Below, piece by piece: positions 11,892 through 48,454 of a stretch of DNA of 64,000 nt (positions within the stretch are counted from its first letter, which is position 1; each line of letters starts with the position of its first letter). This DNA is from Methanolobus vulcani (lineage in GTDB: Archaea; Halobacteriota; Methanosarcinia; Methanosarcinales; Methanosarcinaceae): NCBI RefSeq assembly GCF_006546655.1, contig NZ_VIAQ01000019.1, forward strand, positions 1-64,000. The letters run 5' to 3'. The notes under the pieces were generated by a model. It saw only the letters and a list, made by a program, of their open reading frames with translations. It did not search any database and had not been told where the DNA came from. Made by a program: the position numbers and the translations under genes.

Positions 11892-12870
11892 CGTAATTTC
11901 AAATCGTTCAGAATTATTATTTTTGTATGACGCAAAAGATTCGAACCCCAATGGTGACCCTCTCGATGAGAATAAACCCAGGATAGATGAAGAAACTGGA
12001 ATTAATCTTGTTACAGATGTAAGACTAAAAAGAACAATTCGAGATTACCTATATAAATTTAAGGAACAAGAGATATTCGTTCGTGAAATTGAAGATGAGG
12101 AGGGTCATATCCAAGATGCAAAACTCAGAGCGGAAGACTTTTTATTGGAAAATGGCAAGGCTGTAGACAAAAAAGATATTAGTCTGGCAGAGATGAAAAA
12201 AATTATTGATGAAAATGTTCTCAAAGATTGTATTGATGTCAGATTGTTTGGTGTCACGCTTCCCATTGAAAAAGAAACTAACAAAAGTTCCTCAATTACC
12301 CACACAGGTCCAGTGCAATTTAAAATAGGACGTTCATTACATAAAGTTTTTACAAAACATTTCAAAGGAACTGGAGCATTTGCATCTAAAAAAGGTGCAT
12401 CACAAAAAACCTTCCGAGAAGAAGATTTTTTACCTTATTCGCTTATTTGTTTCTATGGCATCATAAATGAAAATGTTGCAAATGAAACAAGATTGACGGA
12501 AGATGACATAAAATTACTTTTAGATGGAATGTGGAATGGAACAAAAAGCCTAATATCTAGATCTAAAGTGGGCCAGGTTCCAAGATTGATTTTAAAAATC
12601 AATTACAAAAAAGAGAACTATCACATCGGTGATCTGAATAATATGCTAAAACTTGATTCAAACATACCAGATGATGAAATACGCGATGTCTCCCAGATAA
12701 AATTAGATATTTCACAACTTATCAGTGCCTTTTCTAAAAACATTGAGACTATTGATAATGTAGAATACTGTATAGACGACAGGGTGAATTTGTTATTTGA
12801 TGGAAAAGAAACAACCCTTAGTGAATGTCTAAAGAATAAGAAATTATCAATCAAAGAACTGAAGTTTTAG
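11884..12870 (+). CDS. cas7: Cas7 (Csh2), backbone subunit of type I-B Cascade
   Basis: 328 residues from the ATG at 11884, chosen because GGAG lies 9 nt upstream; an ATG two codons earlier is possible. The N-terminus carries the Csh2 signature (FLYDAKDSNPNGDPLDENKPRID...LVTDVRLKRTIRDYL), the RRM-like fold that polymerises along crRNA. The thumb segment HTGPVQFKIGRSLHKV and the later GMWNGTKSLISRSKVGQ also fit. It overlaps the end of cas8b and is followed after 8 bp by cas5. Intact. Confidence 0.95.
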   Translation: MSDVISNRSELLFLYDAKDSNPNGDPLDENKPRIDEETGINLVTDVRLKRTIRDYLYKFKEQEIFVREIEDEEGHIQDAKLRAEDFLLENGKAVDKKDISLAEMKKIIDENVLKDCIDVRLFGVTLPIEKETNKSSSITHTGPVQFKIGRSLHKVFTKHFKGTGAFASKKGASQKTFREEDFLPYSLICFYGIINENVANETRLTEDDIKLLLDGMWNGTKSLISRSKVGQVPRLILKINYKKENYHIGDLNNMLKLDSNIPDDEIRDVSQIKLDISQLISAFSKNIETIDNVEYCIDDRVNLLFDGKETTLSECLKNKKLSIKELKF

Positions 12871-12878
12871 GTGTTAAT

Positions 12879-13595
12879 GTGGATAAGGTACTTGCATTCG
12901 ATGTGTGGGGAGAATATGCTCATTTCAGGAAGTATTATACCACCACATCACCACTCACTTTTTCCATACCACCACGAACTGCAATATGTGGCTTAATTGC
13001 AGCAATTATTGGTATTGATAAAACAGAATATCTTAGTTATTTCTCAAAAGATAAAGCTGATATTGCCGTGAAACTGTTGTCTCCAGTAAAAAAGGTTAGA
13101 CTTTCTGAGAATCTAATCGACACCAAAACTGCACTAATGATGAGTAAAATAAAGAACCGTACACAAATACGCTTCGAACTTCTAAAGGATGCAAAGTTTA
13201 GAATATATTTTAGCCATAAAGAAGCTGAATTATATGAAAAACTGAGTTCATACCTTACGCAGCATCAGTCTTTTTATACCCCCTGTCTTGGACTAAGTGA
13301 GCATATTGCAAATTTTGCGTTTGTTGGTGAATTCAGCTCTGAGCTGAAAAATGGAACCGAAGATTTTGTAAGAATAGATTCCGCAATTCCAGTCAAACAA
13401 AATTCAAATTTAAAAATCAAGTTTGATGAAAATGGTGGCGAGTATTTCCATGAAACTTTACCTATTGAAATGGCAGAGGATAGAACTGTACTGGAATATT
13501 CTAAAGTAGCTTTTGAGCGTAATGGTCAACCCATAATTGCAAAATTAGACACGTATTGGGAACTTGATAATGGTGAGAGAATTGTCTTCTTATGA
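12879..13595 (+). CDS. cas5: Cas5 (Cas5h/b), 5'-handle binding Cascade subunit
   Basis: 238 residues starting at GTG. The N-terminus, VLAFDVWGEYAHFRKYYTTTSPLTFSIPPRTAICGLIAAIIGI, is the Cas5 signature with the glycine-rich P-P-R-T-x-x-x-G-L turn. Cas5 caps the crRNA 5' end in Cascade. The C-terminus overlaps the start of cas3. No sign of damage. Confidence 0.94.
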   Translation: MDKVLAFDVWGEYAHFRKYYTTTSPLTFSIPPRTAICGLIAAIIGIDKTEYLSYFSKDKADIAVKLLSPVKKVRLSENLIDTKTALMMSKIKNRTQIRFELLKDAKFRIYFSHKEAELYEKLSSYLTQHQSFYTPCLGLSEHIANFAFVGEFSSELKNGTEDFVRIDSAIPVKQNSNLKIKFDENGGEYFHETLPIEMAEDRTVLEYSKVAFERNGQPIIAKLDTYWELDNGERIVFL

Positions 13596-15954
13596 ACTAC
13601 TCTCTCACCCTGAGAAAACACTCCATACTCACCTCGGAAATGTTGCAGATCTTAGTAGAATTACTATTAATTCAAAGAATTTAAATTTTGAAAATTTAGA
13701 TGTAAATATTCTTGCAGATATATCATATATCATTGGTGCCTGCCATGACCTTGGTAAAGCCACACGTTATTTTCAAGATTATATACGAGAAACGGATGAA
13801 CAACGTAAATTAAAATTTAAGAACAATCCTCTTACTCGGCATGGACTGATTTCTGCTGTTTTTACTTACTATGTACTAAAACAACATATTCAAGAAAAAA
13901 ATGAGGAGCTTTTTTTCATACCATTATTTGGATATTTAGCTGTAAAAAGGCATCATGGTAATTTGAATAACCCTATTTTAGAATTGCTTGCTTTAGATGA
14001 TGAAAATATTGAATATTTAAAAAAGCAAGCTGAAGCTATAGATTCAAAGCAAATAAATGAGGTTTATCAGTCACTTTTACCTGACATAAATACCAATGAT
14101 TTCTTGAAGCAAATTGAACCATTGTCCATAGAAATAAAAAAAAGCAAAAGGCAATTAGCAAGACACTTGAAAATTGAAGGGTCAACATATAGTTATATCC
14201 TCTTTCAACTTTTGTATTCAGTTCTTTTGAACTCAGATAAAACAGATGCTGCAAGTCTCAGCATGTCTACTCGACCAAAGATTAGCCCATTATTAGTAGA
14301 TGAATATCGCAAATTTAAAAAATGGAATAACACAGAGGAAGGAATAAACAACATTCGAAATCTAATCTATTCTGATGTTACAGATGAAATTAAGAACATA
14401 AATCTTGATCATAGAATCTATTCTTTGAATGTTCCAACTGGCACAGGAAAAACACTTACTTCATTCTCATTGTCATTAAAATTAAGAGAAAAGATAGAGA
14501 GTGAACTCAATTATTCTCCAAAAATAATATACAGTTTGCCTTTTTTGAGCATAATAGATCAGAATTATTCAGTATTCGAAGATGTTTTTAAAACAATTTA
14601 TGAAGATGACCCAGATACATCTACACTATTAAAACATCACCACTTGTCAGATATCCAGTACACATTTCAAGATGATGAGTTTAAAGAAGATAAAGCTCTT
14701 TTATTAATTGAAGGTTGGAATTCAGAAATAGTTGTCACTACATTCGTACAGTTTTTCCATACACTGATATCGAATAGAAACAGGTCATTAAGAAAATTCC
14801 ACAGCATTGCTAATTCCATTATTATTCTCGATGAAGTTCAATCTATTCCACATAAGTATTGGCTACTTTTTAAAGAACTTATTATAACATTATCCAAGCA
14901 TCTAAACACATATTTTGTCTTTGTTACTGCAACACAACCTCTTATTTTTAATGAAAATGAAGGAGAAATTGTTGAACTTGCAAAGAATAAGAATGACTAT
15001 TTTTCCAAATTTGATCGAATTAGCCTTCAATACTTACCTGAACCTATGAGTTTAGATGATTTCAAGGAAAAGGCAAGATTAGACATTGAAACAATGGAAA
15101 ATAATGATTTTTTAATCGTTTTAAACACCATCAATGCAAGTAAAAAAGTATATGAGCATCTCACATCTCCGAAAAAACAATCCATTGACTACTTTTATCT
15201 TTCAACGCATATAACTCCAAAAGAACGCCTTGAAAGAATTAAACAAATAAAGAACACTAAAAAACGGAGAGTAATAGTAAGCACTCAATTGATAGAAGCG
15301 GGTGTTGACATTGATGTTGATGTGGTTTATAGAGACATGAGTACTTTGGACTCCATTAACCAAGTTGCAGGAAGATGCAATAGAAACTTCGATACCAAAA
15401 AGAAAGGAGAAGTAAAGATATTCATTCTCAAAGACGAGATAAAAGAATACTACAAATATATCTATCCTGCTTTTCTGATTGACAAAACCAAAGAAACTCT
15501 AGCTGGAACTGGTATCATAGAAGAAAAGCAATTTTTAGAACTAAACAACGAGTATTTCAAAAAGATAAAAGAAACTCAAAGTGAAGATGAAGCGAAAAAA
15601 ATCCTTGATGCTTTACATAATATGCGTTTTGATTACATCAAGGAAAATTTCCATCTGATTGAAAATGATTATGAAAAAGCAGATGTATTCATTGAAATTG
15701 ATGATAATGCCCATGCTATTTGGCAACAATTCAAAGCACTTCGTGAAATCAAGAACTCACTTGAAAGGAAAAACAAATTCTTGAATTTTAAAAAGCAGTT
15801 CTACGAGTATGTTATATCAGTGCCAAAAAGCAAAGCACCAGCGTTAGTTGATTCTGATACTGGAATTGGTTACATTCCGTATGATAAACTTAATGATTGG
15901 TATAATGAAGAAACAGGGTTTATAGCAAAAGATGGGGGGACATTGATTACTTGA
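13570..15954 (+). CDS. cas3: Cas3 HD nuclease-helicase
   Basis: About 794 residues from the ATG at 13570 (a TTG two codons upstream is also open). The HD nuclease domain is at the N-terminus: HTHLGNVADL near residue 18, ACHDLGK near 60, with RHG and KRHHGN further on. The SF2 helicase follows: Walker A PTGTGKT near 290, DEVQ (the Cas3 form of the DEAD box) near 421, SAT-like VTATQP, and motif VI QVAGRCNR near 600. The protein shreds target DNA recruited by Cascade. All key motifs are present, so it looks functional. It overlaps cas5 upstream and cas6 downstream. AT content drops sharply right after its stop. Confidence 0.95.
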   Translation: MVRELSSYELLSHPEKTLHTHLGNVADLSRITINSKNLNFENLDVNILADISYIIGACHDLGKATRYFQDYIRETDEQRKLKFKNNPLTRHGLISAVFTYYVLKQHIQEKNEELFFIPLFGYLAVKRHHGNLNNPILELLALDDENIEYLKKQAEAIDSKQINEVYQSLLPDINTNDFLKQIEPLSIEIKKSKRQLARHLKIEGSTYSYILFQLLYSVLLNSDKTDAASLSMSTRPKISPLLVDEYRKFKKWNNTEEGINNIRNLIYSDVTDEIKNINLDHRIYSLNVPTGTGKTLTSFSLSLKLREKIESELNYSPKIIYSLPFLSIIDQNYSVFEDVFKTIYEDDPDTSTLLKHHHLSDIQYTFQDDEFKEDKALLLIEGWNSEIVVTTFVQFFHTLISNRNRSLRKFHSIANSIIILDEVQSIPHKYWLLFKELIITLSKHLNTYFVFVTATQPLIFNENEGEIVELAKNKNDYFSKFDRISLQYLPEPMSLDDFKEKARLDIETMENNDFLIVLNTINASKKVYEHLTSPKKQSIDYFYLSTHITPKERLERIKQIKNTKKRRVIVSTQLIEAGVDIDVDVVYRDMSTLDSINQVAGRCNRNFDTKKKGEVKIFILKDEIKEYYKYIYPAFLIDKTKETLAGTGIIEEKQFLELNNEYFKKIKETQSEDEAKKILDALHNMRFDYIKENFHLIENDYEKADVFIEIDDNAHAIWQQFKALREIKNSLERKNKFLNFKKQFYEYVISVPKSKAPALVDSDTGIGYIPYDKLNDWYNEETGFIAKDGGTLIT

Positions 15955-16610
15955 TTGAACTAAAGATTTTCACCCTAACCCTCACCTCCACCCACCCCAT
16001 CAAAGGATCCGGTGCACAGCTTAGAGGCTTCTTTGCCACCAAATTCAACGAATACAACCTCTTACACCAACATAACACTGATAAATTCATCTACCAGTAC
16101 CCGATGGTCCAGTACAAAATGATAGGACAAACACCCACAGTCATCGGAATAAATGACGGTGCAGAGGTGCTCAAAGAAATATACGATGAGTACGACAAAA
16201 TCAACCTTAATGGCAATGAGTATGAGATATTAGAAAGGGGAATAAGCTACAAGAAAGAAGAATTTGGAATCTCCGAAAAGCTAATCAAATACGATTTTGT
16301 AACACCCTGGTTCGCACTGAATCAGGAAAATCATAGAAAATATCTAACCTCTAACAAGGAACAACAGGCAAATCTATTAAACCGAAATCTAACCGGTAAC
16401 ATGCTTTCCATGTCAAAATCCTTGAATTACCAAGTTCCTGAAAGAATAAAATGCCATACTGAACTGAAAGCTCGTCGTTCAAGTCTGAAAGGAAATGAGA
16501 TACTTGCCTTCAAAGGCTCCTTTGTCACAAACTTCCAGATCCCCGACTACCTGGGATTAGGCAAATCCGTATCACGTGGATTTGGGACGGTGAAACAATG
16601 CAACTTGTAA
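15951..16610 (+). CDS. cas6: Cas6, CRISPR RNA endoribonuclease
   Basis: 219 residues from TTG, with a G-run (GGGGGGA) about 10 nt upstream; it overlaps the cas3 stop. Cas6 cuts the repeat RNA to make crRNAs. The C-terminal glycine-rich segment YLGLGKSVSRGFGTVK is the Cas6 hallmark, and the N-terminal HPIKGSGAQLRGFFATKF matches the first ferredoxin helix region of the Cas6b-type family. The catalytic histidine cannot be fixed by eye. Codon use changes here: C-ending codons are frequent, unlike in cas8b-cas3. It may belong to a differently inherited block with cas1. Confidence 0.85.
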   Translation: MIELKIFTLTLTSTHPIKGSGAQLRGFFATKFNEYNLLHQHNTDKFIYQYPMVQYKMIGQTPTVIGINDGAEVLKEIYDEYDKINLNGNEYEILERGISYKKEEFGISEKLIKYDFVTPWFALNQENHRKYLTSNKEQQANLLNRNLTGNMLSMSKSLNYQVPERIKCHTELKARRSSLKGNEILAFKGSFVTNFQIPDYLGLGKSVSRGFGTVKQCNL

Positions 16611-17566
16611 TCAATTCACGTGGCTCTTACCTCAAAAAACAACAGAACTGTTTTCTTGTCAAGAACGAAGACAAAGTGTTCGAAGTCTCTGCCAACAAAG
16701 TTGAAAGTATCCTCATAACCACATCAGCAACCATTACAACTGATGCTATCAAGTTCGCTGTTGAAAATAACATTGACATAGTGTTTCTAGACCATTTTGG
16801 TGACCCATATGGAAGAGTATGGCATTCCAAATTAGGAAGTACTGTACTTATTCGTAGAAAACAACTTGAAATTGCAGACAAAGAGAAAGGCTTTGACCTT
16901 GCAAAAGATTGGATAGAGGTAAAAATCAACAATCAAATCGAATTTCTGAAAGACCTAAAGAAGAACCGTCCAGAAAAACGTGAAGAAATGGATGAATACA
17001 TAACAAATATAGAAGCAATGAAGGATAAGCTCATTGAACTTGACGGGGTTCTCGATGAAGCAAGAGGATCTATATTGGGAATAGAAGGTATGTCTTCAAG
17101 ACACTATTTTAATGCACTTAGCTATATTACGCCTGAAAAATGGAAATTTGAAGGAAGAAGCAGAAATCCTGCAGTCGATGAATTTAACTGTTTGCTTAAT
17201 TATGGATATGGTGTCCTTTATTCAATGGTAGAAAAAGCTTGTATCCTCTCAGGACTTGATCCTTATGTGGGTTTCATACACACTGATAACTACAACAAGA
17301 AATCACTTGTATTTGACCTTATAGAAATGTATCGAATCCATGTTGACAGGACCGTGGTCAACCTATTCTCAAAAAGAAAGATCAAAGAGGATTATTTTAA
17401 CAGCATCCCCAATGGCCTGAGCCTTAACAAAGATGGTAAAGCTGTGCTTATCCAAGCGCTTAACGAGGTTTTAGACCAGAGTATCAGCTATCATGGCAGG
17501 AATATCAAAATCAGAAATACAATACAAAGTGATTGTCATAAAATAGCTAATTCACTTATCAAATGA
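16598..17566 (+). CDS. cas1: Cas1 integrase
   Basis: 322 residues; ATG with GGTGA just upstream, overlapping the end of cas6. Cas1 catalyses spacer insertion with Cas2. The N-terminal beta domain runs to about residue 80. The helical catalytic domain has E in GIEGMSSRHYF (near 163), H in GFIHTDNYNKKSL (near 228) and D in VFDLIEMYR (near 241), the metal-binding triad. Length is typical. Intact. Confidence 0.97.
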   Translation: MQLVINSRGSYLKKQQNCFLVKNEDKVFEVSANKVESILITTSATITTDAIKFAVENNIDIVFLDHFGDPYGRVWHSKLGSTVLIRRKQLEIADKEKGFDLAKDWIEVKINNQIEFLKDLKKNRPEKREEMDEYITNIEAMKDKLIELDGVLDEARGSILGIEGMSSRHYFNALSYITPEKWKFEGRSRNPAVDEFNCLLNYGYGVLYSMVEKACILSGLDPYVGFIHTDNYNKKSLVFDLIEMYRIHVDRTVVNLFSKRKIKEDYFNSIPNGLSLNKDGKAVLIQALNEVLDQSISYHGRNIKIRNTIQSDCHKIANSLIK

Positions 17567-17869
<303 letters not shown>

Positions 17870-17876
17870 GGATATC

Positions 17877-18479
17877 ATGGAAGAGCTAGAAAGTGAAAGT
17901 TCTACAATAATTACTATTTCAGACGTGCTGGAATATCTATTCTGCCCCAGATTTATCTATTTTATGTACTGCCTGGATATACCTCAACATGAAGAAAACA
18001 GATTCAAGGTCATCAAAGGAAGAGATGTTCATAAAAAGCGGCAAATGACAAACAGAGAATATGTGAGGAAGAAACTAAACTGTATTAGCAAAGAATCCGA
18101 AGTCTATGTCGTTTCCAAAGCCCACCACATAAAAGGAATAGTGGATGAAGTACTTTTTTTAGAAGATAATACTGCTGCTCCTTTGGAATATAAGTTTGCA
18201 GAATATAAAGATAAGGTATTCTCAACTTACAAATATCAACTTGTTCTACAGGCATTGTTGATAAAAGAGAATTACAACATAGAAGTTCAAAAAGGATATA
18301 TCTGCTATACTCGTAGTAATAGTATGATAAAGGAATTAGCTTTTAAGTTATCAGATTTCAAAAAGGCTAATGACATCATCACAGATATTATACAGATAGT
18401 TGACAAAGGAAAATACCCTAAAGCAACAAAATCAAAGAACAAATGTATTGATTGTTGTTACAGAAATATATGTGCATGA
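17877..18479 (+). CDS. cas4: Cas4 nuclease of the adaptation module
   Basis: 200 residues with GAGGAT before the ATG. One iron-sulfur cysteine lies at the N-terminus (FCPRF, C23) and three or four at the C-terminus (C190, C193, C194, C199). The RecB-like nuclease core is between them, with a G-I-V-D-E motif (KGIVDEVLFLEDN) and a PLEYKF segment carrying the catalytic Asp, Glu and Lys. Cas4 trims prespacers and sets their PAM orientation. Last in the operon, after cas2; in many type I-B loci it precedes cas1. Confidence 0.94.
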   Translation: MEELESESSTIITISDVLEYLFCPRFIYFMYCLDIPQHEENRFKVIKGRDVHKKRQMTNREYVRKKLNCISKESEVYVVSKAHHIKGIVDEVLFLEDNTAAPLEYKFAEYKDKVFSTYKYQLVLQALLIKENYNIEVQKGYICYTRSNSMIKELAFKLSDFKKANDIITDIIQIVDKGKYPKATKSKNKCIDCCYRNICA

Positions 18480-18591
18480 CATAATTATCTTATACTTATA
18501 AGGAGTTCAATAATTTTGCAACAAGAATCAGCGTGTTCTGAAAGAAGCAATTTAACTGGTTATTTTGCTAAAAGCAGGAAATATTTGTGCT
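18480..18591 (+). promoter_or_regulatory. CRISPR leader
   Basis: 112 bp between cas4 and the first repeat, AT-rich with TATA-like CTTATACTTATAAGG near 18489-18503. Orientation is set by the repeat, whose 3' end is the conserved ATTGAAAC, and by the degenerate repeats at the opposite end. It should contain the array promoter and the Cas1-Cas2 docking site. Confidence 0.75.
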
Positions 18592-21500
18592 ATTCAAAAT
18601 CAAGATCCATTAAAACAAGGATTGAAACATAAATTTCAGTGGATCGCAAGCATGATACCTGAATATTCAAAATCAAGATCCATTAAAACAAGGATTGAAA
18701 CCCTCAATACCTTTGCCGCCTGAAATGGTGCATAAGACATTCAAAATCAAGATCCATTAAAACAAGGATTGAAACATGTTGGATGTTCAAATGCCGAACT
18801 AAGACTTATTATTCAAAATCAAGATCCATTAAAACAAGGATTGAAACAGGTTCCTACTGTAAGTGTCTGTGGCGTTGTCTCCATTCAAAATCAAGATCCA
18901 TTAAAACAAGGATTGAAACCCGTAAATTCAGAATTGCCAGCAGCAGATGTGGTTGAATTCAAAATCAAGATCCATTAAAACAAGGATTGAAACAGAGATA
19001 CGCGGCTGCTGACTTAAGGCGTGGTGGTGCTATTCAAAATCAAGATCCATTAAAACAAGGATTGAAACAAATCTCATCTCCTCTTCGGCTTCATTAAATT
19101 CAAAATTCAAAATCAAGATCCATTAAAACAAGGATTGAAACTATCGATGGTGCATCCGGTAATGTTCCTGAAATATGATTCAAAATCAAGATCCATTAAA
19201 ACAAGGATTGAAACTGTTAACAATACCGTCCACAACATCAACTTCCGTGATTCAAAATCAAGATCCATTAAAACAAGGATTGAAACAGCAATTCGACCAC
19301 AATATATGCTACTGTGAGTACGATTCAAAATCAAGATCCATTAAAACAAGGATTGAAACTCCTCTTCGTGGATGAGAAACAGATCAATCTCATAGAATTC
19401 AAAATCAAGATCCATTAAAACAAGGATTGAAACAGATCGTATCCGCAATCGGTGCATGGATACCATTTACATTCAAAATCAAGATCCATTAAAACAAGGA
19501 TTGAAACTGTATTCGTGAACAGATGACGAGTTCCAACCCAAGAAATTCAAAATCAAGATCCATTAAAACAAGGATTGAAACCTCTTGTACCTTGAAGACA
19601 AGACTGCTTATGCCATTTATTCAAAATCAAGATCCATTAAAACAAGGATTGAAACAGTTCGAGCTAGAAATCACCCTCGCGGAAATCGTGGCATTCAAAA
19701 TCAAGATCCATTAAAACAAGGATTGAAACTTGTTCTTCCTATACCGAACATGTAGATTCAGCCTCATTCAAAATCAAGATCCATTAAAACAAGGATTGAA
19801 ACCGGAAACTGATAAGGGTGTTCTGCTTGAACCTGCAATTCAAAATCAAGATCCATTAAAACAAGGATTGAAACACTTCGATAATGGGTGACTTCTTTAC
19901 GGCCTTTGATATTCAAAATCAAGATCCATTAAAACAAGGATTGAAACTTAACTCACTGTGGTATTCTGGGTGATGAAGATAACATTCAAAATCAAGATCC
20001 ATTAAAACAAGGATTGAAACTAATGGAATTCAACAACTATTCACAATATAGACAAATATTCAAAATCAAGATCCATTAAAACAAGGATTGAAACTAGAGT
20101 AATTGTCTGGTTGCCTCTGCATCCGCGAGTGATTCAAAATCAAGATCCATTAAAACAAGGATTGAAACCACGTGTGCTGGTGTTTGCCTGGTGTCCCAGG
20201 ACGTATTCAAAATCAAGATCCATTAAAACAAGGATTGAAACAATGAAACCTCTTGATCATCCCATCACCTACACCCAAATTCAAAATCAAGATCCATTAA
20301 AACAAGGATTGAAACAGTTAGGAGAGGTAAAACAATGTGGGCTACCCGGATTCAAAATCAAGATCCATTAAAACAAGGATTGAAACAGATTGTAAATGAT
20401 TACACCGAAGACAGGAAAATCATTCAAAATCAAGATCCATTAAAACAAGGATTGAAACCATTTACACGCACGTTCTTACGTGCAATGTCTTCGATTCAAA
20501 ATCAAGATCCATTAAAACAAGGATTGAAACAGAGAGACGGGTAAGTGGAAGACCGTGGCACTCACAATTCAAAATCAAGATCCATTAAAACAAGGATTGA
20601 AACAGTAATTCGACCACAATATATAGCATTGTGAGTCCGATTCAAAATCAAGATCCATTAAAACAAGGATTGAAACATGCTTTTGTGTAATGGTGATGGC
20701 AAGAGAAGGGATTCAAAATCAAGATCCATTAAAACAAGGATTGAAACTTATCTTGACACTGAAAGGAACCTCACAGAGGATGATTCAAAATCAAGATCCA
20801 TTAAAACAAGGATTGAAACTAGTAATTGGAGGGGATTGAACCTTAATACTGATGATTCAAAATCAAGATCCATTAAAACAAGGATTGAAACCCGATGAAG
20901 ACGACGTATCTGTCGATGCCGATGATATTCAAAATCAAGATCCATTAAAACAAGGATTGAAACGGCTATCTTTCCAGGTTCCATCTGCAATTGCTTCCTA
21001 TTCAAAATCAAGATCCATTAAAACAAGGATTGAAACACCGCCTCATTTCTTCATTTTGAACTGAGACTTAAACATTCAAAATCAAGATCCATTAAAACAA
21101 GGATTGAAACCCTAAGGATCGTTTCGGAACACATCTTTTGAACCTATTCAAAATCAAGATCCATTAAAACAAGGATTGAAACCTTGGAGGAGTGATTTGA
21201 TGAAAGGAATTGATAAGAATTCAAAATCAAGATCCATTAAAACAAGGATTGAAACGAAAAAGATATCTCCGGCTTAAAAAACAGTACCACTATTCAAAAT
21301 CAAGATCCATTAAAACAAGGATTGAAACTGAAACTCTACTTATAATAATTGCGTTCTGTGAATATTCAAAATCAAGATCCATTAAAACAAGGATTGAAAC
21401 GATTATCATGGAATATCCGAGGATGATGAGTATCCAATTCAAAATCAAGATCCATTAAAACAAGGATTGAAACCAAAACATACGGTGTCAATTACATAAG

Positions 21501-23806
21501 CTCAGAACTAATTCAAAATCAAGATCCATTAAAACAAGGATTGAAACGCTATCCCTGAAAGGACACTACGCAACCATATTAAATTCAAAATCAAGATCCA
21601 TTAAAACAAGGATTGAAACCTACAAGATAGTACATTGCAACAAAAGCAGCAGCAGGATTCAAAATCAAGATCCATTAAAACAAGGATTGAAACAGTCCTA
21701 CTTTCAAGGATATCCCCTCGAACATAGTATTCAAAATCAAGATCCATTAAAACAAGGATTGAAACCATCGTATTTGAATGCCCTCTTACATTCGCGAATG
21801 ATTCAAAATCAAGATCCATTAAAACAAGGATTGAAACATCTTCAAGAAAACCTGTAAAGCTCTAGCAGCTTCAATTCAAAATCAAGATCCATTAAAACAA
21901 GGATTGAAACTGGCTGCGACCTTATTTCTAAGGCTTTCAGTTGTAGATTCAAAATCAAGATCCATTAAAACAAGGATTGAAACATTCAGGATGTCCTGAA
22001 ACTGACGAACTGAAAGAATAATTCAAAATCAAGATCCATTAAAACAAGGATTGAAACGCTGTTGCCGGTGCCGGTTATCTGATATATAAGAAAATTCAAA
22101 ATCAAGATCCATTAAAACAAGGATTGAAACATTTTAGTTTGGATGGAAGAAACAGGAAAAAAATATTCAAAATCAAGATCCATTAAAACAAGGATTGAAA
22201 CTATTATAGATTATCATAGAGTACATAGAGTACTATGAATTCAAAATCAAGATCCATTAAAACAAGGATTGAAACTTCTAACCCTATTCTTAGCTATCCG
22301 ATCTGTTTACTATTCAAAATCAAGATCCATTAAAACAAGGATTGAAACTCCTTGATACTATTAATCTTTTCTTCTGCACCACCGATTCAAAATCAAGATC
22401 CATTAAAACAAGGATTGAAACGACATAATAAGAAGAAGTTAAAGAACATATAAAAGGATTCAAAATCAAGATCCATTAAAACAAGGATTGAAACTGGTCC
22501 TTCACTTCCACAGCTGGCAGAGCTTCCACATTCAAAATCAAGATCCATTAAAACAAGGATTGAAACGTTCATCTCCACACGTGACATTTTGACGAAATTC
22601 TTATTCAAAATCAAGATCCATTAAAACAAGGATTGAAACTATTTTTATAAATCCTGTTCAGGATCCCGGGTATTCATTCAAAATCAAGATCCATTAAAAC
22701 AAGGATTGAAACTTGCCGTATTATCATCTCCTCATTGAATCCTTGAGAATTCAAAATCAAGATCCATTAAAACAAGGATTGAAACTTGCTTTTCCTATGC
22801 CGAACATTTAGATTCAGCCTATTCAAAATCAAGATCCATTAAAACAAGGATTGAAACAAAAAAGATTGAGGAAGCTTGACGGTAAGCTCAGAATTCAAAA
22901 TCAAGATCCATTAAAACAAGGATTGAAACTAAAATAGCCTTCCGGGGCATCCATTGAGAAGGATGATTCAAAATCAAGATCCATTAAAACAAGGATTGAA
23001 ACTCAGAACATAGATAATAGATATAATCCCCCTCAGCCATTCAAAATCAAGATCCATTAAAACAAGGATTGAAACAGCCCTTCGATCATTCTGTCTATTT
23101 CTTCTTGTTTCATATTCAAAATCAAGATCCATTAAAACAAGGATTGAAACGAAAAATAGTAAAATATCCAGAAAATGCAGGCAAGTTATTCAAAATCAAG
23201 ATCCATTAAAACAAGGATTGAAACAACGGAGTAGCTTAAGCTCTCTTTTTTTTATCAAAAATTCAAAATCAAGATCCATTAAAACAAGGATTGAAACCAT
23301 TCTGGGAGTTGCACCCATGTCTTTTACAGGCGGATTCAAAATCAAGATCCACTAAAACAAGGATTGAAACTTACATACTCGTTTTTGAGGTGGCTTACAT
23401 GGCTGATTCAAAATCAAGATCCACTAAAACAAGGATTGAAACTGCCGAGGTTATGAGGGCACAGTATACCAGGCAAGAATTCAAAATCAAGATCCACTAA
23501 AACAAGGATTGAAACACTGATTACGGAGGTATAACATGGTAACAAGTACTAAATTCAAAATCAAGATCCACTAAAACAAGGATTGAAACTAGAGGATGTT
23601 TTTCAATATCGGGGAATGGATGGATTCAAAATCAAGATCCACTAAAACAAGGATTGAAACGTCATACAGATAACAGCACCAGCAAGCCATTCCTGAATTC
23701 AAAATCAAGATCCACTAAAACAAGGATTGAAACAATTAGTTTCAGATGAAACAACAACTTCATAATAACATTCAAAATCAAGATCCACTAAAACAAGGAT
23801 TGAAAC
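18592..23806 (+). CRISPR. Type I-B CRISPR array, 72 repeats and 71 spacers
   Basis: The repeat is 37 bp, beginning ATTCAAAATCAAGATCC and ending CAAGGATTGAAAC. I counted 72 copies with spacers of 34 to 38 bp. Repeats 1-65 are constant; repeats 66-72 (from 23334) all carry a T-to-C change (CCATTAAAAC to CCACTAAAAC), marking an older block at the trailer end. The ATTGAAAC end predicts the usual 8-nt 5' handle. Two spacer pairs are near-identical (19287-19322 with 20604-20639; 19730-19765 with 22786-22820). Repeat uniformity and intact cas genes indicate an active or recently active array. Open frames in it are artefacts of the repeats. Confidence 0.99.
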
Positions 23807-23841
23807 TGACAATGCATTAAGATAAATTCTTCCGTTAGTTC

Positions 23842-23877
23842 ATTTAAAATCAAAATCCACTGTAACAAGGTAAGTGA
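23842..23877 (+). repeat. Degenerate terminal CRISPR repeat
   Basis: ATTTAAAATCAAAATCCAC followed by TGTAACAAGG aligns with the repeat at several mismatches and loses similarity in its last 8 bases, abutting the tRNA-Leu 3' end. It closes a 72nd spacer (23807-23841) and keeps the CCAC variant. Decay at this end confirms it is the trailer. Confidence 0.85.
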
Positions 23878-43055: not shown

Positions 43056-43130
43056 GCTCCGATAGTGTAGCACGGCCAATCATGCAGGACTCTCACTCCT
43101 GCGACTGGGGTTCGAATCCCCATCGGAGCA
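43056..43130 (+). tRNA. tRNA-Glu (CUC)
   Basis: Acceptor GCTCCGA with TCGGAGC, discriminator A at 43130, D arm AGTGTAGCACGGCCAATCAT, anticodon loop in CAGGACTCTCACTCCTG (CUC) and T arm GGGGTTCGAATCCCC. Complete. Confidence 0.95.
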
Positions 43131-43385
43131 CTCAAAATTTTTTTATACTCCTAATTTTGATGTGCTTTTTTGTAGAGAGATTCAAATTAATCTATTCTTA
43201 GATTTTTATCTATCATTTAAGCACTACACCACTCATCCTTCATGTTGAGATATGATTTTAAGATCTCATTTGCGCTAATTAGTTATTTATACTATCCAGG
43301 AAATCATGTCTAAAAGTTAAATTAAAGTTGCAGCAGTCTCTTTATATTTAATTTAGATGATTATATAATATGGAGATTAGTTTAA

Positions 43386-43793
43386 ATGAGTAAACCTCTT
43401 ACATTCCTTGATTTATTCGCTGGTGCAGGCGGTTTGTCAGAAGGATTTATCAGGGCAGGTTACTCTCCAGTTGCACATGTTGAAATGGATGCTGCAGCTT
43501 GTTATACTTTAAAAACAAGGGCTGCGTATCACTGGCTTAAAAAACATGGCAAACTCGACATCTATAGCGATTATCTCTATGGAAAAATAAGCAGATCAGA
43601 ATTGTATGATTCGGTTCCAGAATCATTGATAAGTTCAGTGATCAATTCAGAGATAAGTGAAGATTCTTTACCTTTTATCTTCTCTGAGATTGATGATATA
43701 TTGGATGGAAAGTCTCTTGACCTCGTTATTGGCGGTCCGCCCTGCCAAGCTTATTCACTAGTAGGAAGATCACGTGATGAGAGAGGAATCTGA
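43386..43793 (+). pseudogene. N-terminal fragment of a 5-methylcytosine DNA methyltransferase
   Basis: 135 residues, about a third of a full enzyme. Motif I TFLDLFAGAGGLSEGFIRAGY binds SAM, and the catalytic Cys is in IGGPPCQAYSLVGRSRDERG (motif IV). Homologues continue with motifs VI-X and target recognition; here the frame stops right after motif IV, and the next gene on the other strand begins 17 bp on. The catalytic loop is present but the enzyme cannot be active. Remnant of a restriction-modification or defence locus. No restriction enzyme is visible. Confidence 0.9.
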
Positions 43794-43809: not shown

Positions 43810-44328
43810 TTAGTTCCAGCCATAGACAGCTCTCCTTCCATTGTACTTGTCTACATCAACCAGATCTGCAAGCTCCATATGATGAAGCGATTCAAAAGGA
43901 ATTGTTGAGCGCTGATTGCCTTTACTTAGAAGAATATCACCATCCGGACCTATGATGAAATATGATTCCAGCATATCTTCAACAGATTCAAAGACAGGTG
44001 AGGTACCATTTTTGAATACAATTCCATCGTTTATATTCTTGAAGATATCAAATTCTTCCTGGTTAAGAAGAAGATCCAATGCATCATCATTCTGGCCTTT
44101 CATATGAAGCATCTGGAAGACCTTCCACCTTTCCGGACACACGGATGATATGAACGGTTTCATATCTTCAGAGTAGTTCATCTTGGTGACTGTAGTGTTG
44201 ATCTTTAACTTCATGCCATACTTGCGGACAAGTTCGCAAACTTTACGGACATGTTCCACATGATTTCCGTTCCCCCTCCCCAGCTCTTTTTCGATTAATT
44301 CATCCGCATCTCCCATATATTGCTTCAT
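43810..44328 (-). pseudogene. C-terminal half of a prokaryotic viperin
   Basis: 172 residues matching the C-terminal part of viperin radical-SAM enzymes, which make the chain-terminating nucleotide ddhCTP in animals and its relatives in prokaryotes. Visible blocks: LGRGNGNHVEHVRKVCELVRKYGMKLKINTTVTKMNYSEDM and PERWKVFQMLHMKGQN, and the C-terminal GRRAVYGWN. The N-terminal half with the CxxxCxxC cluster and much of the radical-SAM barrel is missing. Its ATG overlaps the stop of the kinase gene, so it may still be translated, but without the cluster it cannot be an active viperin. Confidence 0.85.
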
Positions 44329-45878
44329 CTATCCACAAAACCCTGATCTTCAATTGTAAATGCAAAAGTACTTCCTGCTCCTTCTTCACTCTCAACATGG
44401 ATAGTTCCGTTATGCAGTTCAACAAACCACTTTACCAGAGTGAGTCCCAGACCGGTGCCGCCATATGTTCTTGCATTTGATGAATCTGCCTGGATGAACG
44501 GGTCAAATATTTGTTTCAGCTTATGTTCAGGTATCCCTATTCCGGAATCAGATACAGAAACATGGAGCTTATCATCGTTCTTTTCTGCAGTAACTAAAAC
44601 CTTACCATTATTAGGTGTAAATTTTATTGCATTGCTCAGAAGATTAGACATGACCAGTTTAAATTTCAGCCTGTCACCATAGATTTCATCCACCTGGATA
44701 TCACTATCAAGTCGAAGATCAATATTTTTGCCTTGTGCCATTGGAGAGAATATTGCAAAAACATCATCTAATACTTCCATAATAGAGAAAATCTCACATT
44801 CAAGTTCCATTCTGCATGTTTCTAATTTAGAGACATTGAGAATATCATTTATAACTTCAAGAAGATGTTTGCCACTTTTTGCAATATGATTTGCATACCC
44901 AAGTTGTTTCTCATTGAGGTCCCCGGACATTCCTGTACACAAAACATCTGAAAATCCTATAATAGCAGTAAGAGGAGTACGCAATTCATGGCTCATATTA
45001 TCGAGGAATTCCGATTTTGCCCTGCTAAGGGATTCTGCTTCTAATTTAGTATTCAACAGCTCCTTTTCAGCTTGTTTACGTTTAGTAACATCCCTGAATA
45101 CCAGAGTATATCCTGTAGAATCCCCTCCTTCATTAATATTAACAGAAATAGTACCTTCCAGATAAATGACAGTCTTATCTTTCTTGATTAATCTGGTTTC
45201 AAAAACATTTTCAGAATTTGATTTTGCATTAATCACATGACGACTCATAAAATCAGGTAATTTTTTCCCGGATTCTATGTCACAACCCATTGCCTCTGAA
45301 ACTTTATGATTATAATAAGTCACGTTAAGTTGAGGATCAACTACAACAACACAATCACACATATTTTCAAGTACAGCATTTAAGAAATTGGTAGTCTTTT
45401 CAAGTTCGCCGTATTTATCCTCAAGCTTCCTGACAACCCTTTCACTGTATTGTTTATAATATTCTTCATCAGTCCCAATGATTTTCTCTTCTGGCTTGAT
45501 TAAACCAGCCGCATATTCATCAAGAACATTTTGTACCTCATGCAATAATTCATGTGGTTCAGCGGGTTTAACAATAAAACGTGAAGCACCGAGGGATGTT
45601 GCAAGCAAATGATCTTGCTCGCTCACATAATGTGCAGTATAAAATACAAAAGGAATATCTTTAGTATCAGGATTACTCTTTACTTCCTTTATCAGTGTGA
45701 AACCATCCATATTCGGCATCATAATATCTGATATAATTAAACCTGGCTTTGTATCTTTTAAAAACTCCAGCGCTTCATTGCCATCAGTCACCTCAAATGC
45801 TTCATAACCATTCGATACCAGTATTTTTGCAAGCAACTTTCTGGCATTTATATTATCATCAACTACAAGCACTTTCAT
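44325..45878 (-). CDS. Hybrid sensor histidine kinase (REC-PAS-HisKA-HATPase)
   Basis: 517 residues, cytoplasmic. Receiver domain at the N-terminus (VLVVDDNINARK, phospho-Asp in LIISDIMMPNMDG, Lys in RFIVKPAEP), a coiled stretch, PAS domain with PAC (about 160-265), HisKA phosphoacceptor SHELRTPLTAIIGFS, and ATPase boxes NAIKFTP, DSGIGIP, GGTGLGLTLVKWF. The last gene of the sensor cluster, overlapping the receiver pseudogene upstream by 4 bp. Intact. Confidence 0.93.
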   Translation of the reverse strand: MKVLVVDDNINARKLLAKILVSNGYEAFEVTDGNEALEFLKDTKPGLIISDIMMPNMDGFTLIKEVKSNPDTKDIPFVFYTAHYVSEQDHLLATSLGASRFIVKPAEPHELLHEVQNVLDEYAAGLIKPEEKIIGTDEEYYKQYSERVVRKLEDKYGELEKTTNFLNAVLENMCDCVVVVDPQLNVTYYNHKVSEAMGCDIESGKKLPDFMSRHVINAKSNSENVFETRLIKKDKTVIYLEGTISVNINEGGDSTGYTLVFRDVTKRKQAEKELLNTKLEAESLSRAKSEFLDNMSHELRTPLTAIIGFSDVLCTGMSGDLNEKQLGYANHIAKSGKHLLEVINDILNVSKLETCRMELECEIFSIMEVLDDVFAIFSPMAQGKNIDLRLDSDIQVDEIYGDRLKFKLVMSNLLSNAIKFTPNNGKVLVTAEKNDDKLHVSVSDSGIGIPEHKLKQIFDPFIQADSSNARTYGGTGLGLTLVKWFVELHNGTIHVESEEGAGSTFAFTIEDQGFVDR

Positions 45879-46249
45879 GGTTGCATCCTTTCAATTATTT
45901 TTTCGATATCCGTCATTATTGTCAGGGGATTGATGGGTTTTTCGAAATAACCATTACACCCTGCATCTATGATCTTTTCACGATCCCCTGCCATCGCATA
46001 AGATGTGATAGCAATGATAGGAATTTTTTGCATTGATTCTATTTTACGTATACGTCTGGTAGTTTCAAGCCCATCTATATCAGGAAGCATAATGTCCATC
46101 AAAATCATATCTGGGTTTCCTGTGCCGGCTTTTTCAACTCCTTCCTCACCAGTTACAGCTCCAATAGTCTCATACCCATGCCTTTTTTAAACCATGTCTA
46201 TCAGTTTCATGTTATTTGGATTATCTTCGACAACAAGAACTCTGCTCAT
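45875..46249 (-). pseudogene. Response regulator receiver gene with a nonsense codon
   Basis: Reads as a full receiver of 124 codons: MSRVLVVEDNPNNMKLIDMV, then a TAA at codon 21, then KRHGYETIGAVTGEEG...MILMDIMLPDIDGLETTRRI (phospho-Asp) and YFEKPINPLTI (Lys). One base change in TTA (Leu) would make the TAA. A shorter product could start at an internal ATG (46108) but would lack the first strand and acidic pocket. Overlaps its neighbours by 4 bp on each side, so it was once a full operon member. Confidence 0.85.
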
Positions 46250-47211
46250 ATCAGTTCCACCTCATTTATTGGGATGTGTAAAGTGAATGTACTGCCTTCC
46301 CCGTATTTGCTGATTACATCAATACTTCCATTGAGGACTTCGCGCACAAGTTTTTCTGTGAGATACAGCCCCAAGCCAGTGCCAGATGTTGAATCAGTAA
46401 GATGAGATTCCAGTCTTATAAAAGGTATAAAGAGTTTAGATAAGTCATCTTCTTTAATGCCAATACCCGTATCAATGATAGAAATGTCAACATAATTGTC
46501 ATTTAGTCTTACTTCAAGTGCAACACTGCCTTTTTCCGAGTATTTCACTGAATTTGAAAGCAGGTTTATAATGCACTGTAGCAAACGTCTGCGATCAGAA
46601 TAAATAGTAATATCCGGGATATCTACATTTAGCTCAAGGCCTTTTTCTTCAGCATCCGCTTTAATGAGAGAGACTGCCTCATCTATTACTTCCCCCAGAT
46701 TGAATTCCTCGTTGTAGACTTCCAGTTTTCCAGCTTCAATCTTTGATATGTCAATTACGTCATTTATAAGTGACAGAAGATGTTTTCCGGAGGAAAAGAC
46801 GATCTGGAGTTGTTCTTTTTGCTCTGGGTTCAATTCCCCGGACCAACCTTCAAGAAGAACACTGGAAAATCCAATAATAGAATTAAGTGGCGTACGCAAC
46901 TCATGAGATGTAGTGGCTATAAACATTGATTTCAGGCGATCAAGTTCCTGTAAACGGATGTTAGCTTTTTTGAGTTCTTCTGATGTATTATTAAGGTTCT
47001 CAACAATACTAACCAACTCCTGTTGACTGGCCTGGAGATCTGCCGTACGTTCTTCTACTATCTTTTCAAGATGGTCACGATATTCACGTAATTCATCCTC
47101 TGCTTTTTTACGTTTTGTTATTATTTCTGAAATATCCAATAACTCCATCAATTTTATCATCCTTATCGTATCTTGGAACATAGGTTCCTTCAAAGAACTC
47201 TGTATTGCCAT
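46246..47211 (-). CDS. Histidine kinase C-terminal part (HisKA-HATPase), split from its sensor
   Basis: 321 residues as an open frame. Coiled coil from ITKRKKAEDELREYRDHLEKIVEERTADLQ, HisKA TSHELRTPLNSIIGFS, ATPase NSVKYSE, DTGIGIKED, GTGLGLYL. The first 30 residues are read in a frame different from the PAS part of the upstream gene; the true sensor continues into it after one inserted base near 47117-47126. So this is most likely the kinase half of a gene broken by a frameshift, although separate translation is possible. Confidence 0.85.
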   Translation of the reverse strand: MAIQSSLKEPMFQDTIRMIKLMELLDISEIITKRKKAEDELREYRDHLEKIVEERTADLQASQQELVSIVENLNNTSEELKKANIRLQELDRLKSMFIATTSHELRTPLNSIIGFSSVLLEGWSGELNPEQKEQLQIVFSSGKHLLSLINDVIDISKIEAGKLEVYNEEFNLGEVIDEAVSLIKADAEEKGLELNVDIPDITIYSDRRRLLQCIINLLSNSVKYSEKGSVALEVRLNDNYVDISIIDTGIGIKEDDLSKLFIPFIRLESHLTDSTSGTGLGLYLTEKLVREVLNGSIDVISKYGEGSTFTLHIPINEVELI

Positions 47212-48454
47212 CCTTAGAAGTTAAAGCAGATTCAAAATGCTGAGGTTTGCCTGTAGATAACACTTCTTCTTTGATTCTTGTAAGTTTGTCGGCTACTTCT
47301 TCAGACAAAAAAGAATAGTCTGACTTTCCAATCATTTCCTCTTCCGGCAGGCCAAGCGGAGAATTGACAACAAATAGATATTTAAGTTCTTTATCATGCA
47401 TCACAATATAGTCAGGAGTATTAGATGCAATTATTTTGAATCGACTCTCGCTTTCCCTGAGTTTGCTTTCGGTATTCTTGTGTTTTTCGATTTCAGCTTC
47501 AAGATTCCGGTTAACCATTTTGAGATCTTCAGTTTTCCTATTTACCTGCCACTTAAATGTGATACTTACAAGAAAAAGAGCAACTATGACAAATACCGCA
47601 AATCCGAAAGTTGGAAGCACCCATCCAGGAATTATGACCTCCTGCTGATCATTTTCTGCTAATAGATATTTGTCGATTAAAGAATAATATTGTGAGTTTT
47701 TATCCTCCTTCATTTCATGGAGGTTTCTGTCAATTCCTTCTATAAGAATAGGATTTATTGTAGCATTCTTATGGAAAGCAAATCTTAGTTCTATAGGATT
47801 AAAAATAATATTTGTCCGTTCCACATCAAATTTATTTTTTTCACTCTCTGCGAAAAGTCTGTTCACAGCACCGGCATCAACTGATTTGGAATCAATAGAA
47901 ACGAATACATCTTCATATGAATTAACTTCTACAAACGTGCAATTTATATCAAATTCTTCGGCAAGAGCCTTGATCCCCCTTTCTCCATCGGCATGAATAC
48001 TACCATTCATCACCGCAACTGTTTTTCCATCAAGGTCAGTAAGGCTTGCAATCGTCCTACCAGGAATAGTATAAACAACACCCCAATTGTTGAACACCGT
48101 TTCATTATTGAAATCATATATTTCTGCCCGGTGTTCAGAATAAGCAACGTCAACCATGACATCGATATCTCCGGACTCCAGACGATCAAGACATGTATTC
48201 CAGTCCCCATAAACATATTCAATATTCCAGCTTTCGTTCTGAGCAACCAGTTCTATAATCTCGGGAAAAAAACCTTTCCAGTCTCCATTCTCATCTAAAT
48301 AGACTTTTGGAGGATTATCATAAACACCTACCCTGATAGCCAAATCCTCATTTTGTAAAGAAGAAGCCATTGGAACCAGAATGATAATCAACAAAATGAC
48401 CATTAGAACTGACCTTGAAATTGAGAAGAACTGGTCTTTATTTATGTTGGCCAT
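47108..48454 (-). CDS. Sensor part: exported SBP_bac_3 domain, membrane helix, PAS
   Basis: 448 residues. N-terminal signal anchor (VLMVILLIIILVPMASSL), an extracellular solute-binding domain (LAIRVGVYDNPPKVYLDENGDWKGFFPEIIELVAQNESWNIEYVYGDW...), a membrane helix (VLPTFGFAVFVIVALFLVSITF), coiled coil, then PAS (FKIIASNTPDYIVMHDKELKYLFVVN) and PAC ending FRNNNKT. The PAC lacks its usual continuation, which is found in the next frame of the downstream ORF (see 46246). Originally a single amino-acid or metabolite-sensing histidine kinase. Confidence 0.85.
   Translation of the reverse strand: MANINKDQFFSISRSVLMVILLIIILVPMASSLQNEDLAIRVGVYDNPPKVYLDENGDWKGFFPEIIELVAQNESWNIEYVYGDWNTCLDRLESGDIDVMVDVAYSEHRAEIYDFNNETVFNNWGVVYTIPGRTIASLTDLDGKTVAVMNGSIHADGERGIKALAEEFDINCTFVEVNSYEDVFVSIDSKSVDAGAVNRLFAESEKNKFDVERTNIIFNPIELRFAFHKNATINPILIEGIDRNLHEMKEDKNSQYYSLIDKYLLAENDQQEVIIPGWVLPTFGFAVFVIVALFLVSITFKWQVNRKTEDLKMVNRNLEAEIEKHKNTESKLRESESRFKIIASNTPDYIVMHDKELKYLFVVNSPLGLPEEEMIGKSDYSFLSEEVADKLTRIKEEVLSTGKPQHFESALTSKDGNTEFFEGTYVPRYDKDDKIDGVIGYFRNNNKT

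What the first reader, a model, noticed from the sequence alone, without database searches (positions are those of the whole stretch)
43810..44328. Truncated prokaryotic viperin beside a truncated DNA methyltransferase
The C-terminal half of a viperin without its iron-sulfur cluster half overlaps a sensor-kinase gene. Across 17 bp, a cytosine methyltransferase is truncated just after its catalytic motif. Both are antiviral genes and appear to be the joined ends of a deleted defence island. Its retention next to the active CRISPR system elsewhere suggests replacement of one defence by another.
Basis: partly seen in the sequence, partly recalled or inferred. Interest (0 to 1): 0.7.

Follow-up and report, generated by a model that had tools for sequence, protein, structure and literature searches.

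The report
Defence-gene scraps at a tRNA hotspot
Two broken pieces of antiviral genes, the tail of a viperin and the head of a DNA methyltransferase, lie fused next to a tRNA gene where viruses integrate in related methanogens; they are ordinary leftovers of a lost defence island, and intact copies of both kinds of gene exist elsewhere in the same genome.

Summary
ORF 43810-44328(-) is the C-terminal ~60% of a prokaryotic viperin without the CxxxCxxC half. ORF 43386-43793(+) is the N-terminal third of a DrmMII-like cytosine-5 methyltransferase, ending just after the PCQ motif. The host is a Methanolobus. Relatives show two separate junctions. One (43780-43789) joins the methyltransferase to a point ~20-28 bp past the viperin stop. 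The other (44300-44308) joins the viperin's cut 5' side to the native end of a sensor-kinase gene, so the ORF's first ~6 residues are not viperin. The pieces sit between tRNA-Glu(CTC) and a sensor-kinase cluster. Six relatives carry integrase genes at that tRNA; one shows a complete provirus-like element with its attachment repeat. The same genome holds two intact viperins and a DISARM operon; on contig C3 intact viperin and methyltransferase genes face each other 9.9 kb apart in the window's order and orientation, which supports a collapsed island for the first junction. "Replacement by CRISPR" is not supported. The viperin piece is 96% identical to M. bombayensis DNA although a housekeeping gene is only 85%, so it arrived recently by transfer. 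Adjoining regulators are decaying too. Best reading: non-functional relic, ordinary.

The parts
43056..43131 (+). tRNA-Glu (CTC), the fixed left border and integration hotspot
   Evidence: ARAGORN. Near-identical and downstream of the PAN ATPase gene in all 15 compared relatives. Six of them have a tyrosine-integrase-like gene just downstream. G024 has the 3' 16 bp repeated ~16.9 kb downstream as an attR-like copy.
43386..43793 (+). Truncated DrmMII-like cytosine-5 DNA methyltransferase: N-terminal ~134 codons, then a stop at the junction. Motifs I and IV (PCQ) kept; the rest lost.
   Evidence: PADLOC DrmMII 4.1e-50, positions 3-138/422. Most homologues in the order have open frames of 393-436 aa; the two short ones are 304 and 117 aa. 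The missing C-terminal part of this copy is nowhere else in the genome; only the C3 gene is found.
43780..43789 (.). Junction 1: methyltransferase reading frame to downstream flank of viperin (start of the lost VakA kinase gene). Both parents resemble each other over up to ~10 bp (AGAGAGGAAT).
   Evidence: Alignment with viperin downstream flanks of M. bombayensis, M. psychrotolerans and own C3, and with full methyltransferase genes.
43810..44308 (-). Viperin C-terminal part, native stop codon intact; lacks the CxxxCxxC radical-SAM half
   Evidence: 96.3% nucleotide identity to M. bombayensis, 95.5% to M. psychrotolerans, 88% to own C3 viperin; profile matches.
44300..44308 (.). Junction 2: inside viperin to the 3' flank of the sensor-kinase gene, up to 9 bp of shared sequence (TCATCCGCA)
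   Evidence: Kinase-side homology of G024 begins at window 44304; G025 relic and viperin parents diverge on opposite sides of this stretch.
44309..44328 (-). Chimeric start of the ORF (MKQYMG), derived from the kinase 3' flank; the start codon is incidental
   Evidence: Same sequence (CCCATATATTGCTTCATC) next to the kinase relic in G025, which has no viperin there.
44325..45878 (-). Hybrid receiver-PAS-histidine kinase gene, native to the locus and intact (517 aa, 516 in G024)
   Evidence: Pfam; orthologue in G024 at 80% protein identity over nearly full length.

Best explanation
These are two non-functional gene remnants of a defence island that sat at a tRNA-Glu integration hotspot in a Methanolobus archaeon. 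A viperin-VakA module related to that of M. bombayensis was acquired recently, facing a DrmMII-like methyltransferase gene next to the tRNA. One deletion fused the methyltransferase at codon ~134 to a point just past the viperin stop. A second event removed the viperin's 5' half and fused the rest to the 3' flank of the native sensor-kinase gene. Both joints show short stretches shared by the two parents, as in microhomology-mediated (illegitimate) recombination. Shown: the truncations, both junctions, the hotspot, intact relatives, and recent transfer of the viperin sequence. Inferred: that both genes stood together at this site, the order of the events, the end-joining mechanism, and lack of function. 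A viperin without its iron-sulfur-cluster half cannot do radical-SAM chemistry, and a C5 methyltransferase without motifs VI-X cannot recognise a target or methylate (established knowledge of the families).
For: Profile coverage of only one part of each protein. All full viperins of the order have open frames of about 257-360 aa, and most methyltransferase homologues 393-436 aa. Own contig C3 carries the intact convergent arrangement Csa3 / viperin-VakA-radicalSAM-TPR ... Vsr-response regulator-GHKL-drmMII-DISARM, 9.9 kb between the points that are joined in the window. Junction sequences. tRNA-Glu is followed by integrase-like genes in six relatives, and G024 has an integrase plus a 16-bp attR-like repeat. 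Viperin piece 96.3% nt identical (dS 0.07) to M. bombayensis while the PAN gene is 85.2% (dS 0.92). Missing halves not elsewhere in the genome apart from the intact paralogues. Neighbouring regulators also decayed: stop codon in the response regulator, frameshift in the second kinase, absence of the adjoining 1537-aa gene.
Against: No genome was found with the intact ancestral island at this tRNA. The window methyltransferase is only 70-77% identical to any known copy, so it need not have come with the viperin; its nearest relatives (77%, 76%) stand in an operon without DISARM or viperin. The viperin piece could instead be a 0.5-kb fragment captured at a break. Both ORFs lack internal stops, and counts on the window branch (4 nonsynonymous, 5 synonymous against M. 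bombayensis/M. psychrotolerans) are too few to prove relaxed selection.
Confidence: 0.86

Rival explanations
1. Fragment capture (a variant of the relic reading): the ~0.5-kb viperin piece never belonged to an island here. It was pasted in as filler DNA when a break between a lone methyltransferase operon and the kinase flank was repaired.
For: Both ends of the piece are cut and carry short shared sequence. The nearest methyltransferases (G098, G033) stand in methyltransferase-GHKL operons without viperin. The source sequence is nearly that of another species (96%).
Against: Order and orientation match the intact C3 arrangement (a 1-in-4 chance for two genes), and the breakpoint lies past the viperin stop in the VakA region, as expected for a simple deletion.
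Confidence: 0.25
2. The short viperin is a real C-terminal-domain protein, translated in the kinase operon through the ATGA overlap, for example modulating the full-length viperins of the same cell.
For: Open frame without stops, ATGA overlap with the upstream gene, native C terminus intact, close full-length relatives in the genome.
Against: No relative among 185 genomes has such a protein in a conserved operon. Two other C-terminal relics in the genus (G006, G021) are cut at different residues (85, 75), as random decay would give. The operon it would join has a nonsense codon and a frameshift.
Confidence: 0.04
3. Assembly artefact: the contig wrongly joins pieces of other loci.
For: Draft genome of 20 contigs; intact paralogues exist elsewhere.
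Against: The window sequences are distinct from the paralogues (viperin 88% at DNA level and methyltransferase 70% at protein level), both flanks are syntenic with relatives, and the site lies well inside a 306-kb contig.
Confidence: 0.03

Closest known systems
Prokaryotic viperin (pVip), with its associated nucleotide kinase VakA (PADLOC names)
   Same: C-terminal ~165 residues, 92-93% identical to viperins of Methanolobus psychrotolerans and M. bombayensis
   Different: No CxxxCxxC cluster-binding half, no VakA, no Csa3/CARF neighbour; chimeric first six residues
DrmMII of class 2 DISARM / C5 DNA methyltransferases in methyltransferase-GHKL-Vsr operons
   Same: First ~132 residues, 70-77% identical, motifs I and IV (PCQ)
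   Different: Motifs VI-X and target-recognition domain missing; no drmA, drmB, drmC, GHKL or Vsr genes at this site
tRNA-associated integration hotspots with decayed mobile or defence cargo
   Same: tRNA-Glu border, variable cargo, integrases and an attR-like repeat in relatives, truncated genes
   Different: No integrase or attachment repeat remains in the window copy

Membership tests
Prokaryotic viperin | C-terminal viperin sequence recognised by family profiles | tested here: met
   NF038283 1.3e-32; pVip 4.5e-36
Prokaryotic viperin | N-terminal radical-SAM CxxxCxxC motif | tested here: not met
   Present in own C3 copy (CNYKCRFC), absent from the window ORF
Prokaryotic viperin | Curated whole-protein score | tested here: not met
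   113 bits against cut-off 180
Prokaryotic viperin | Antiviral ddh-nucleotide synthesis | not testable with these tools
   Needs biochemistry; excluded on chemistry if the cluster-binding half is absent (established knowledge)
DrmMII / C5 DNA methyltransferase | Motif I and catalytic PCQ motif IV | tested here: met
   FAGAGG and GGPPCQ in the ORF
DrmMII / C5 DNA methyltransferase | Motifs VI, VIII, IX, X and target-recognition domain | tested here: not met
   ENV, QRRKR and GNAVP of the C3 gene lie beyond the truncation point; remainder not elsewhere in the genome except in the C3 gene
DISARM system | drmA, drmB and drmC next to the methyltransferase | tested here: not met
   Neighbours in the window are tRNA-Glu/PAN and kinase genes; drmA-B-C-MII set found on C3 in this genome
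tRNA integration hotspot | Integrase and duplicated tRNA end in at least one relative | tested here: met
   G024 integrase and 16-bp repeat; integrase-like genes in five further genomes
tRNA integration hotspot | Integrase or attachment repeat in the window copy | tested here: not met
   No repeat of the tRNA end beyond generic 13-mers

The most novel reading that the evidence does not exclude
The 172-aa viperin remnant is a translated, exapted protein, coupled to the sensor-kinase operon, that binds viperin substrates or partners and modulates the two full-length viperins of the same cell.
Probability: 0.03. Interest if true: 0.55.

Novelty: new member of a known kind. Interest (0 to 1): 0.2.

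Why it matters
It is a dated example of fast turnover of archaeal defence genes: a viperin sequence moved between Methanolobus species recently and was already reduced to a scrap at a tRNA-Glu hotspot used by integrating elements, while other intact copies remain in the same genome. It also warns against counting partial pVip or DrmMII hits as working defence systems.

Tried and rejected
A single deletion junction joining both truncated ends: rejected, because the viperin's missing part is on the side away from the methyltransferase. Duplication of the own-genome C3 island: rejected for a recent copy, because the methyltransferase is only 70% (protein) and viperin 88% (DNA) identical. Replacement by CRISPR: rejected, because two full viperins and DISARM persist. 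Missing halves moved elsewhere in the genome: not found. Viral carriage of this viperin: no relative in IMG/VR; methyltransferase relatives in IMG/VR reach only 65% identity. CRISPR spacers of the window (71) against the fetched loci: no meaningful match. The original pVip paper was not held, and two literature searches gave nothing specific to this locus.

Full report
Observation. Both ORFs are as described. The minus-strand ORF 43810-44328 covers positions 119-268 of the 281-position viperin profile (E 1.3e-32) and 110-254 of 262 of the PADLOC pVip profile (4.5e-36), and has no CxxxCxxC motif. The plus-strand ORF 43386-43793 covers positions 3-138 of 422 of DrmMII (4.1e-50) and ends shortly after GGPPCQ. 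The two stops are 16 bp apart. The viperin ORF overlaps the kinase ORF by four bases.

Where it is. The window belongs to a Methanolobus genome of 2.92 Mb in 20 contigs. Two genus members are identified by name (matching contig lengths and coordinates): M. bombayensis DSM 7082 (G001) and M. psychrotolerans YSF-03 (G007). Both gene pieces lie between tRNA-Glu(CTC) at 43056-43131, which lies downstream of the PAN ATPase gene in the 15 relatives compared, and a sensor cluster at 44325-48454. In G024, one of the closest relatives by PAN (93% nt), the same cluster follows the same tRNA after a ~16.9 kb provirus-like element with a tyrosine integrase and a 16-bp copy of the tRNA end. Five further genomes (G002, G005, G020, G021, G023) have integrase-like genes at the same tRNA (recognised by reading the sequence, size and position; only the G024 integrase was scanned against profiles). 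In G004 the tRNA is followed closely by the genes that lie ~6 kb further on in the window. The site is therefore an integration hotspot with variable cargo.

The junctions. Comparison with full viperin operons shows homology from residue ~7 of the ORF through the native stop codon to ~20-28 bp beyond it. There it meets the methyltransferase frame, at 43780-43789, where both parents resemble each other over up to ~10 bp. At the other end the viperin gives way to the 3' flank of the kinase gene at 44300-44308; G024 homology starts at 44304 and G025 carries the same flank beside a 167-bp kinase relic. So the viperin lost its first half at a second junction, not at the one with the methyltransferase, and the first six residues of the ORF are not viperin. 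The exact amount of microhomology is an upper limit because the parents are not identical to the window.

The intact counterpart. The same genome holds two full-length viperins (contig C3, 277 aa; contig C19, 354 aa). On C3 the order is Csa3/CARF, viperin, VakA, a second radical-SAM protein and a TPR protein (all but Csa3 on one strand), then Vsr, a response-regulator-like protein, a GHKL ATPase, drmMII, a 1012-aa protein, drmC, drmB and drmA on the other (profiles; the drmA profile call was made on the near-identical M. bombayensis copy). The points that are joined in the window lie 9.9 kb apart there, in the same relative order and orientation. A single deletion in an island of this design would give junction 1. 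This is a model, not a direct ancestor: the window methyltransferase is 70% identical to the C3 one and closer (76-77%) to copies in G098 and G033 that stand in methyltransferase-GHKL operons (with response regulator and Vsr in G098) without DISARM.

Age and selection. The viperin piece is 96.3% identical in DNA to M. bombayensis (dN 0.029, dS 0.075) while the PAN gene of the same pair is 85.2% identical with dS 0.92, so the sequence moved between lineages well after the species split. Nine changes on the window branch (4 nonsynonymous, 5 synonymous) decide nothing about selection. The absence of stop codons is expected for a young relic.

Surrounding decay. The response regulator next to the kinase has an in-frame stop, the periplasmic-binding kinase is split by a frameshift near 47114-47121, and the 1537-aa methyl-accepting-type gene that follows in G024 is absent. 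The hybrid kinase itself is intact. Two other viperin relics in the genus, in G006 and G021, are cut at other residues (85 and 75), which fits random decay rather than a defined C-terminal-domain protein. Among 185 genomes of the order no equally short viperin in a conserved operon was found.

CRISPR. A type I-B cas operon (10038-18479) and a 72-repeat array (18590-23870) are in the window, about 20 kb away. Whether it is active was not tested. Because intact viperins and a DISARM operon remain in the genome, the idea of replacement has no support.

Function. By established knowledge of the families, a viperin without its cluster-binding motif cannot start radical chemistry, and a C5 methyltransferase cut after motif IV lacks catalytic motifs VI and VIII and the target-recognition domain. 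The most likely function is none. The main open question is whether the viperin piece is the remains of a whole module at this site or filler captured during repair; the C3 arrangement favours the former.

Noticed in passing
45875-46249 (-): Response-regulator gene between two kinase genes carries an in-frame stop codon where the G024 orthologue is open; likely a pseudogene (or sequencing error).
   Followed up: partly
46246-48454 (-): Periplasmic-binding-protein / histidine kinase gene is split into two ORFs by a frameshift near 47114-47121; it is one 735-aa frame in G024.
   Followed up: partly
10038-23870 (+): Type I-B CRISPR-Cas locus with 72 repeats and 71 spacers; no spacer matched the proviruses or defence loci fetched here.
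   Followed up: partly
L055 2214 to L129 2113 (G024 C1:835213-852112): Provirus-like element of ~16.9 kb integrated in tRNA-Glu(CTC) with tyrosine integrase and a 16-bp attR-like repeat; integrase-like genes at the same tRNA in G002, G005, G020, G021 and G023.
   Followed up: partly
L009 8986-12092: Methanolobus viperin operon: divergent Csa3-like CARF protein, viperin, VakA nucleotide kinase and a second, diverged viperin-like radical-SAM protein; the same set is seen in M. bombayensis (L070).
   Followed up: no
L010 9160-10224 (-): Second intact viperin of the genome (C19, 354 aa) has ~75 extra N-terminal residues and lies beside glycosyltransferase and sugar-epimerase-like genes.
   Followed up: no
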